This document shows, in pieces, positions 36,776-38,608 of a DNA stretch of 64,000 nucleotides (the first letter of the stretch is position 1; each line of letters opens with the position of its first letter). A program made the position numbers and the translations under genes. Source of the stretch: Chloroflexota bacterium. GTDB lineage: Bacteria; Chloroflexota; Limnocylindria; QHBO01. The notes under the pieces are model-generated. The model saw only the letters and a program-made list of their open reading frames with translations. It did no database searches and had not been told where the DNA came from. The stretch lies in assembly GCA_025699005.1 (NCBI GenBank), contig JAILWI010000003.1, forward strand, positions 124,001 through 188,000, read 5' to 3'.

Positions 36776-36822
36776 TGGTGGGCGACACGGGGCTCCAATC
36801 AGTGGGCTCGTGCTTGTCAAGG
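36776..36822 (-). pseudogene. degenerate tRNA-Val 3' half (tRNA remnant)
   Basis: Minus strand CTTGACAAGCACGAGCCCACTGATTGGAGCCCCGTGTCGCCCACCA vs intact tRNA-Val CTTGACATGCAAGAGGTCACTGGTTCGAGTCCAGTGTCGCCCACCA: 38/46 identical including the terminal GTCGCCCACCA. Confidence 0.75.
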
Positions 36823-36970
36823 TATTCGGGTCGCGCGCTGTGGCGGTGAGCGTGCGGCTACGGGCGTGTAGGCAGGTGTTGTTGTGGTGAGCTGTCGGTC
36901 GCTCTCCGTTCCCGCCGCGGTACTCGTTGGTCACGACGGTGGATGTCGTCAATGTCGCAGTTACACGAAT

Positions 36971-37034
36971 GAAGCCGGGGCCGCCTGCACCGTCCGATCT
37001 TGCGATCCCCGGCTGTCATCGTCACCCCGGCTTC
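36971..37034 (-). repeat. palindromic repeat copy A (64 bp)
   Basis: Bounded by GAAGCCGGGG...CCCCGGCTTC; 53/64 identical to copy B; inner GATC-GCAA-GATC hairpin on minus strand. Confidence 0.8.
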
Positions 37035-37069
37035 CGGAACGCTAGCCGCCCTCGCTTGCCCCTCGCCTC

Positions 37070-37726
37070 TCAGCTGCCGACCGAGGCGATCCACTGCTCG
37101 AGCGCCGAGCGGCTGAGCCCGTACTTGAGATGCCCGCTGCCCAGGTTCATGGCGTTGATGATCTGGGTCGCCGAGCAGCCACCGGTGTCGGCCAGCGTGT
37201 AGGTCGGCGACTTCCTCGCCGTCAGCTCACCGGCGGTGTCGGCCTTGTAGCGCTTGGCGTCGTACTTGGGGAACACATCGGGCAGGACGGTGTCGGCGCA
37301 CAGGTCAACGGCATCGAGAATGCCGTCGCCGTCGGTGTCGGTATCGGTGTCGGGAGCAGCGTCGCAGGTGACGGTGAGCAACACGAGCGCGTCGGCGTGG
37401 AAATCCAGGTCATACCTGCCGGTCGCCGGAACGGTCACCTCGAGCGGTCCCGGAGCAGACCCGGCGACAAATTCGAAAACACCGGTGCCTGTGTGAGTCA
37501 GGGCTAGCCACGCCGATGCGGGTACGTCCCACGGGGTGAACTCGATTCGGATCCGCTCCCCCGCGGCCAGATCGAGGTCATCGAGACTCAGGCTTGGGGA
37601 TGGTGCCGCCGAAGATGAGAAAGACTCGAGGCCTGCGCAGTGTTCGGTTCGTTCGGCGGCCGCCACCGGCCCGGAGAACGTAGCGACGAGGAGCCCGGCT
37701 CCGACCAAAAACAGCAGACGACGCAT
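37070..37726 (-). CDS. secreted protein with thrombospondin type-3-like Asp-rich repeat
   Basis: MRRLLFLVGAGLLVATFSGPVAAAERTEH...DTDTDTDGDGILDAVDLCADTVLPD. Confidence 0.75.
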   Translation of the reverse strand: MRRLLFLVGAGLLVATFSGPVAAAERTEHCAGLESFSSSAAPSPSLSLDDLDLAAGERIRIEFTPWDVPASAWLALTHTGTGVFEFVAGSAPGPLEVTVPATGRYDLDFHADALVLLTVTCDAAPDTDTDTDGDGILDAVDLCADTVLPDVFPKYDAKRYKADTAGELTARKSPTYTLADTGGCSATQIINAMNLGSGHLKYGLSRSALEQWIASVGS

Positions 37727-37935
37727 CGGCGTCACCCTCCACTCGACGGCGCAACAATCAAGGGCGTGCGCCAATCGGCGCAGCATATCGGCCGCCGAGC
37801 GAGCAAGCAGGCACTTACGTGGCGAAAAGTGTGGTCTGGTGGCACCAGCGCGCACGAGGGAGAGCGGCTGCACGCAGCGCCGAAGTCACGCATGGGGTGC
37901 GCCGCACTCGGTCGTAACGTGGCAGGCAAACCAAC

Positions 37936-37999
37936 GAAGCCGGGGCGGCGTGCGCCGTCCGAAGCTGCGATCCTCGGCCGTCTACGTCACCCCGGTTTC
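37936..37999 (-). repeat. palindromic repeat copy B (64 bp)
   Basis: GAAGCCGGGG...CCCCGGTTTC; 24 bp downstream of the 38024-38326 ORF. Confidence 0.8.
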
Positions 38000-38023
38000 G
38001 AGTGGCCAGCGGCGGCTTGTCTC

Positions 38024-38326
38024 TTAGGGCTGGCCGTGGTGGCAGCTACCGAATGGAGGCGCCAGGAAGGTGACCACCGAGGGGTTCGACCGCGTTGCCA
38101 TACAGGCATGCGGAAGGCCATTTCCATGCGACGGCGGCAGGTGGAACGGCCCGAACATCGGGGGCGCATCCTGTGCCGGCTCGGGCACCGTGAACCCGCC
38201 AACCCACTGACTCGTGCCGCTGGGTCCCACCACGAGCTCATGGGCGCTGGCGGGCGCGCTCACCGCCATGGCGGTCAAGGCAGCCAGTGCGGTGGCGAGC
38301 AACAAGGATCGTCTACGACGCAACAC
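38024..38326 (-). CDS. short secreted protein, unknown function
   Basis: GTG start; VLRRRRSLLLATALAALTAMAVSAPASAHELVVGPSGTSQWVGGFTVPEPAQ... signal peptide. Confidence 0.6.
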   Translation of the reverse strand: MLRRRRSLLLATALAALTAMAVSAPASAHELVVGPSGTSQWVGGFTVPEPAQDAPPMFGPFHLPPSHGNGLPHACMATRSNPSVVTFLAPPFGSCHHGQP

Positions 38327-38468
38327 TCTTGGGCACCTCCTCGGCATTGTCCGGCGCGGGGGACGGCAAATGGGCATCCACCGGCGTCCGCCGCTCCGAT
38401 CATTATTGATCGCTGTCAAGGCGCAGCACGCGGACCCGATGGCATCCGAGGTCGCTCGGGATGCGAAC

Positions 38469-38508
38469 GAAGCCGTGGCCGGAGCCGCCTGGAGCATCGG
38501 GAGGCTTC
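38469..38508 (-). repeat. palindromic repeat copy C (truncated, 40 bp)
   Basis: GAAGCCGTGGCCGGAGCCGCCTGG...GGCTTC; 24 bp 3' of tRNA-Val; shares GCCGCCTG block with copy A. Confidence 0.6.
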
Positions 38509-38532
38509 GGCATGCAACGAAAGCGAGGAGTT

Positions 38533-38608
38533 GGTGGGCGACACTGGACTCGAACCAGTGACCTCTTGCATGTCAAGCAAGTGCTCTAACCAGCTGAGCT
38601 AGCCGCCC
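38533..38608 (-). tRNA. tRNA-Val(GAC) with encoded CCA
   Basis: GGGCGGCTAGCTCAGCTGGTTAGAGCACTTGCTTGACATGCAAGAGGTCACTGGTTCGAGTCCAGTGTCGCCCACCA; cloverleaf pairs complete. Confidence 0.96.

What the first reader, a model, noticed from the sequence alone, without database searches (positions are those of the whole stretch)
36776..38608. Gene + palindrome units between an intact and a degenerate tRNA-Val: a possible new cassette-type array
On the minus strand the order is tRNA-Val(GAC) - repeat C - small secreted ORF - repeat B - secreted ORF - repeat A - degenerate tRNA-Val. Each gene, including the tRNA, is followed at 24-35 bp by a member of the same palindromic family. A and B are both exactly 64 bp, 53/64 identical, and bounded by GAAGCCGGGG/CCCCGG(C/T)TTC. 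One gene plus one 3' palindrome per unit, all on one strand, with unrelated small secreted cargo, recalls integron cassettes or a CALIN. I cannot find canonical RYYYAAC/GTTRRRY core sites and no integrase is in the window. This could be a non-integron cassette/REP-like element, a tRNA-targeted integrative remnant, or a repeat family that spreads 3' of genes.
Basis: partly seen in the sequence, partly recalled or inferred. Interest (0 to 1): 0.8.

Follow-up and report, generated by a model that had tools for sequence, protein, structure and literature searches.

The report
Integron-like cassette array without integron parts
Next to a tRNA gene in an uncultured Chloroflexota bacterium lie two small genes, each followed by a copy of the same palindrome; in related genomes this palindrome separates genes in longer arrays, some of them beside a recombinase inside a tRNA island, so it may be an integron-like gene-shuffling system that uses neither the known integron sites nor the known integron enzyme.

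Summary
Palindromes A and B are real and belong to one family; C is not better than chance. The own genome holds only these two copies. Relatives in the same GTDB family hold many more: G020 at least 14, G002 24 arm copies. There they form arrays: one element per gene gap, 26 of 27 neighbouring pairs in the same orientation, unrelated small cargo. The element is a 52-140 bp hairpin with conserved ends, compensatory changes in the stem and a variable middle. That is attC-like architecture, but no copy has the RYYYAAC/GTTRRRY core, and no genome of the family carries an integron integrase above cut-off. Two 95%-identical cassettes in G002 share gene plus element arm and then diverge inside the element, as site-specific recombination would leave them. 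In G002 and G004 the array lies in a tRNA-Leu island with a XerC-like recombinase at its tRNA end. The window locus looks like a two-cassette, integrase-less island at tRNA-Val, bounded by a 46-bp copy of the tRNA 3' end. Best reading: a non-canonical integron-like cassette system. Recombination itself is not shown; hitch-hiking repeats remain the main rival.

The parts
38532..38608 (-). tRNA-Val(GAC), intact; presumed island attachment site
   Evidence: ARAGORN; Rfam 68.5 bits
38024..38326 (-). cargo gene 2: 100-aa secreted-type protein, start GTG
   Evidence: ORF; no Pfam; 39 homologs, mostly on short metagenome contigs; only the own genome among 177 of the class
37936..37999 (-). element B, attC-like palindrome
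   Evidence: 62.9 bits; 56.4 bits
37070..37726 (-). cargo gene 1: 218-aa secreted-type protein
   Evidence: ORF; no Pfam; 23 homologs
36971..37034 (-). element A, attC-like palindrome, same orientation as B
   Evidence: 76 bits; 68 bits
36776..36821 (-). 46-bp copy of the tRNA-Val 3' end, far boundary of the putative 1.8-kb island
   Evidence: blastn 82.6%, E=1.2e-8; family D2

Best explanation
A and B are attC-like recombination sites of a gene-cassette system that is not a canonical integron. Each cassette is a small gene plus one 52-140 bp imperfect palindrome; single-stranded, the palindrome folds into a hairpin with an outer stem, an internal loop, an inner stem and a variable tip. A tyrosine recombinase is inferred to exchange strands in one arm (the GGCCGGGGTCGCC arm), so that cassettes are inserted, removed and moved between arrays. 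In relatives the arrays occupy a conserved chromosomal place (between tig and a ytxH-like gene), in G002 and G004 within an integrative island in tRNA-Leu that carries a XerC-like recombinase beside the tRNA. The window locus would be a two-cassette remnant without recombinase, in an island at tRNA-Val. Shown: element family, arrays, orientation, stem covariation, platform synteny, recombinase beside the tRNA, tRNA repeats, one chimeric junction. Inferred: recombination at the element, that this recombinase does it, and single-strand folding.
For: Arrays: G020 C281 has six copies in 3.1 kb, one per gene gap, all in one orientation. G002 has 24 arm copies; 10 neighbouring pairs lie within 4 kb against 0.87 expected, 0 of 20000 simulations reach it. 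26 of 27 neighbouring pairs have one orientation whatever the gene strand, P=2e-7. Architecture: fixed ends around a middle of 8-75 nt; 85% of cells paired against 78% shuffled and 36-46% slid, 24 double-change cells against 13.8 (0/500), inner-stem G-C/C-G swaps. Mobility: a 95%-identical cassette in G002 L171 and L173 runs from 8 bp before the start codon to 14 bp into the element, then the element interiors are of different types. One cassette lies with an element on each side at tig-ytxH in G001 and at another locus in G002. Platform: tig / tRNA-Leu / recombinase / array / 40-bp tRNA-Leu copy / ytxH / DUF3105 in G002 and G004, with a conserved GACGCGTATAA-type arm motif at both ends.
Against: No recombination was observed; the chimeric junction is one clear case. 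The recombinase is shown at the tRNA end of the island and may act only on tRNA-Leu. Its subfamily has not been shown in G020, G001 or the window genome; the profile search also missed it in G004, so absence is untested. In G002 recombinase and array lie on two contigs joined by a shared 127-bp end that also fits a third contig. Many copies are half-elements or decayed. The window alone has only two copies.
Confidence: 0.55

Rival explanations
1. The palindromes are a non-autonomous transposable repeat (MITE- or REP-like) that inserts 3' of genes and piles up in tRNA islands; the arrays only reflect island hot spots.
For: Conserved ends with variable middle also fit a MITE; many truncated copies; TARG lies just outside one arm in 17 of 48 copies against 0.46 expected, GTAG in 9 of 48, recalling GTAG-tagged REPs (PMC3733652); islands accumulate repeats.
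Against: No consistent target-site duplication in 21 copies; one orientation per array; only 2 to about 24 copies per genome; 52-140 bp against 20-40 bp for REPs; junction inside the element shared with a moved gene.
Confidence: 0.25
2. It is an ordinary integron cassette array (CALIN) whose attC sites have drifted, with a standard IntI elsewhere or lost.
For: Same layout: tandem small genes, one hairpin site each, one orientation; at least two sites less than 4 kb apart meets the CALIN rule of PMC9668308.
Against: RYYYAAC/GTTRRRY absent in 21 of 21 elements on both strands; integron integrase above cut-off in 0 of 22 genomes; the platform recombinase scores 29.5 bits against a 265-bit cut-off; the element ends are strongly conserved in sequence, unlike attC.
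Confidence: 0.08
3. The palindromes are transcription terminators or RNA stability elements kept 3' of genes, and the tRNA repeat is unrelated.
For: GC-rich hairpins 24-35 bp after stop codons in the window; covariation is equally compatible with RNA.
Against: Orientation follows the array and not the genes; near-identical sequence between unrelated genes and across genera; also found 5' of genes; confined to one family in the genomes searched.
Confidence: 0.06

Closest known systems
Integron cassette array / CALIN (attC sites)
   Same: Tandem small genes with one folded palindromic site each, one orientation, variable tip of the hairpin, tyrosine recombinase beside the array, diverse accessory cargo
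   Different: No RYYYAAC/GTTRRRY boxes, no IntI-type integrase, conserved site ends instead of poor sequence conservation, platform inside a tRNA-Leu island
tRNA-targeted integrative elements (genomic islands)
   Same: Intact tRNA at one end, tRNA copy at the other, tyrosine recombinase beside the tRNA, paired arm-type motifs (G002, G004)
   Different: Interior is an array of gene-plus-palindrome units; the window copy lacks the recombinase
dif modules (pdif) of Acinetobacter plasmids
   Same: Single genes or operons moved between short sites by Xer-type recombinases
   Different: dif sites are about 28 bp (own knowledge); dif modules come in two classes, C and D (PMC13141974); here 52-140 bp hairpins in direct orientation
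REP / BIME elements with RAYT
   Same: Extragenic palindromes, sometimes with GTAG beside the hairpin
   Different: Larger, few copies, clustered, one orientation; GTAG in a minority

Membership tests
Integron / CALIN | attC boundary boxes R'' (RYYYAAC) and R' (GTTRRRY) | tested here: not met
   0 of 42 strand tests in 21 elements with 12-bp flanks
Integron / CALIN | integron integrase (IntI) | tested here: not met
   TIGR02249 above cut-off in 0 of 22 family genomes; platform recombinase 29.5 bits against 265. MAGs are incomplete
Integron / CALIN | at least two sites less than 4 kb apart, one orientation | tested here: met
   A-B 965 bp apart; arrays in G020 and G002
Integron / CALIN | hairpin with unpaired spacer, extrahelical bases and variable terminal structure | tested here: inconclusive
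   stem covariation and variable middle shown; spacer and extrahelical bases only by inspection
Integron / CALIN | recombination in the R' box of the folded bottom strand | not testable with these tools
   one chimeric junction consistent with exchange in one arm
tRNA-targeted integrative element (relatives) | tyrosine recombinase beside an intact tRNA and a tRNA copy at the far end | tested here: met
   G004: 12.0 kb, all on one contig; G002: across two contigs
tRNA-targeted integrative element (window) | tRNA copy closing the locus and an integrase | tested here: inconclusive
   46-bp copy E=1e-8; no integrase between the repeats
MITE | target-site duplication | tested here: not met
   none consistent in 21 copies
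REP / RAYT | 20-40 bp palindrome with GTAG or CGTC tag in high copy number | tested here: not met
   52-140 bp; GTAG in 9 of 48; 2-24 copies
REP / RAYT | RAYT transposase in the genome | not tested

The most novel reading that the evidence does not exclude
A second, independent cassette-capture system that works like an integron but with its own site family and its own XerC-like recombinase, based in tRNA-Leu islands of one Chloroflexota family, and feeding small arrays elsewhere, such as the one at tRNA-Val in the window.
Probability: 0.35. Interest if true: 0.9.

Novelty: new variant of a known kind. Interest (0 to 1): 0.72.

Why it matters
Integrons are the best known system that stores and shuffles single genes through folded single-stranded sites. 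A system with the same layout but different sites and a different recombinase would show that this way of collecting genes arose or diverged more than once, and that surveys based on the canonical core and IntI miss arrays. It would also give a testable origin for many small orphan genes on short metagenome contigs.

Tried and rejected
C as a family member: chance-level. Canonical attC core: absent. Integron integrase: none above cut-off. Plasmids, phages and viral contigs: no match; one viral pattern hit scored E=0.28 with the model. Species-wide scan: of 43 stretches only the G020 contigs are clear members. The recombinase in G002 C54, near a decayed arm, is XerC-like and first looked like the candidate; the platform recombinase replaced it. 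L155 12243-12644: its homologs at other places have no element nearby, so it is not evidence of cassette movement. Cargo gene 2 as a marker of further arrays in the class: found only in the own genome. The platform recombinase in viral contigs: none.

Full report
Observation. The window locus reads, on the minus strand, tRNA-Val(GAC), gene 2 (100 aa), element B, gene 1 (218 aa), element A, and a copy of the last 46 nt of tRNA-Val. A and B are related far beyond chance. Element C is not: its best match is 18 bp, and 33 of 2000 shuffles and 51 of 2506 ordinary stretches of the window do as well; it shares at most an arm-like piece with A and B. The own genome (2.57 Mb, 94.5% complete) has exactly two clear copies, both here.

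Relatives. A search of the same family (22 genomes) found copies in G020, and a covariance model of ten copies added G002, G001 and weakly G004. G020 is Chloroflexota bacterium BS_bin.023 by the record title. A second model of 18 copies found the element in only 3 of 399 genomes drawn from the phylum, all in this family. G008 (97% match over 29 bp), G010 and G011 have single arm-like matches.

Arrays. In G020 C281 six copies, some decayed, lie in 3.1 kb; in G002 C73 five lie in 3.9 kb. Between them are unrelated single genes: cyclase domain, FAD-dependent oxidoreductase, cupin, kelch, nucleoside deoxyribosyltransferase and proteins without a family. Elements keep one orientation in 26 of 27 neighbouring pairs while genes point both ways. 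In G002 24 arm copies form 10 neighbouring pairs within 4 kb against 0.87 expected.

The element. Both ends are conserved: GGCCGGGGTCGCCTGCAC at one and GCCGTCAACGTCGCCCCGGCC at the other, with 8 to 75 nt or more between. On 18 copies a named structure of outer and inner stem pairs in 85% of cells, against 78% in shuffles and 36-46% in slid versions. Two inner pairs are swapped as units between sequence types. The shuffle control does not correct for relatedness, so this supports but does not prove a folded form. Outside the two arms lie further conserved letters: GCTTAC on one side in 11 of 30 copies against 0.11 expected, and TARG on the other in 17 of 48 against 0.46. No consistent target-site duplication and no RYYYAAC/GTTRRRY box was found.

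Signs of movement. In G002, L171 and L173 carry the same gene at 95% identity. The identity begins 8 bp before the start codon and stops 14 bp inside the element, where one copy continues with a G020-type interior and the other with a G002-type interior. This is the pattern expected if exchange happens in that arm. The left end of the shared stretch is not at a recognisable element in L173, so one boundary remains unexplained. A second cassette lies with an element on each side between tig and ytxH in G001, and at a different chromosomal place in G002. In L157 and L178 the same arm and riboswitch leader precede different coding regions.

Platform. In G004, on one contig, the order is tig, tRNA-Leu(UAG), a 314-aa XerC-like recombinase, the array, a 40-bp copy of the tRNA-Leu 5' half, a ytxH-like gene and DUF3105; the island is 12.0 kb. 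G002 has the same parts, but the recombinase and the array lie on contigs C73 and C87, whose ends share 127 bp in inverted orientation, an overlap that also fits C33. A motif around GACGCGTATAA lies near both island ends in both genomes. G001 has intact tRNA-Leu, one cassette and no recombinase between tig and ytxH. G020 has the ytxH-like gene on its array contig, about 7 kb from the first element. The recombinase matches XerC/XerD profiles below their cut-offs, and its predicted structure (pLDDT 84.7, pTM 0.63) matches XerA, Tn1549 Int, XerD and lambda Int before the integron integrase 2a3v. It has about 60 relatives at 61% identity or more, mostly on short metagenome contigs, then a clear gap. 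Its place beside tRNA-Leu means it may serve island integration only; a role at the elements is an inference.

Window locus. The upstream neighbours (amidohydrolase or glycosyltransferase, 86-aa gene) are conserved in the family, and tRNA-Val follows the 86-aa gene directly in the window, G008 and G003, at a distance in G019 and G004. Downstream of tRNA-Val the content differs. G004 has its own 2.0-kb insertion there, closed by a perfect copy of the tRNA 3' end and without elements, so this tRNA-Val is a recurrent insertion site independent of the elements. Cargo gene 2 occurs in only the own genome among 177 of the class.

Verdict. The evidence favours an integron-like cassette system with its own site family, of which the window holds a small remnant. 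It fails two defining tests of integrons, so it is not filed as one. That it works like one is supported by layout, orientation, hairpin conservation and one chimeric junction, and needs a recombination test. The attC description used for comparison is from PMC2727003, the CALIN rule from PMC9668308, the REP description from PMC3733652.

Noticed in passing
L031 9894-9982(-), L157 11023-11118(+) and 12018-12102(+), L158 14355-14439(-), L178 8742-8838(-): Variant c-di-GMP-II riboswitch aptamers (GAG and GCG types, RF03169 and RF03170) sit in the arrays, several of them in leaders of small secreted-protein genes close to an element.
   Followed up: partly
L160 7876-9942 (G004): A 2.0-kb insertion at tRNA-Val closed by a perfect copy of the tRNA 3' end, carrying one large membrane protein gene and no elements.
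   Followed up: partly
L031 7211-7436, L032 3362-3589, L034 3218-3444, L068 5002-5226 (G020): One small gene (about 74 aa, MAPLGALTQ...) recurs at 79-86% identity in several array units.
   Followed up: no
L033 2423-2944, L158 13194-13478, L191 8670-9083: An ssb-like gene lies near elements in three genera (G020, G004, G008).
   Followed up: no
window 35133-36704: The FAD-linked oxidase beside the window array has a 45% homolog directly beside an element in G002 (L152 16842-18353); it may be cargo or coincidence.
   Followed up: partly
window 37640-38602 (+): Long open frame antisense to the cargo and tRNA, ending in GDTGLEPVTSCMSSKCSNQLS, probably a spurious antisense-tRNA ORF.
   Followed up: no
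P0063-P0123 (relatives of L159 1497-2441): The recombinase subfamily is sharply bounded: about 60 clusters at 61-78% identity, then 56% and 47%.
   Followed up: partly
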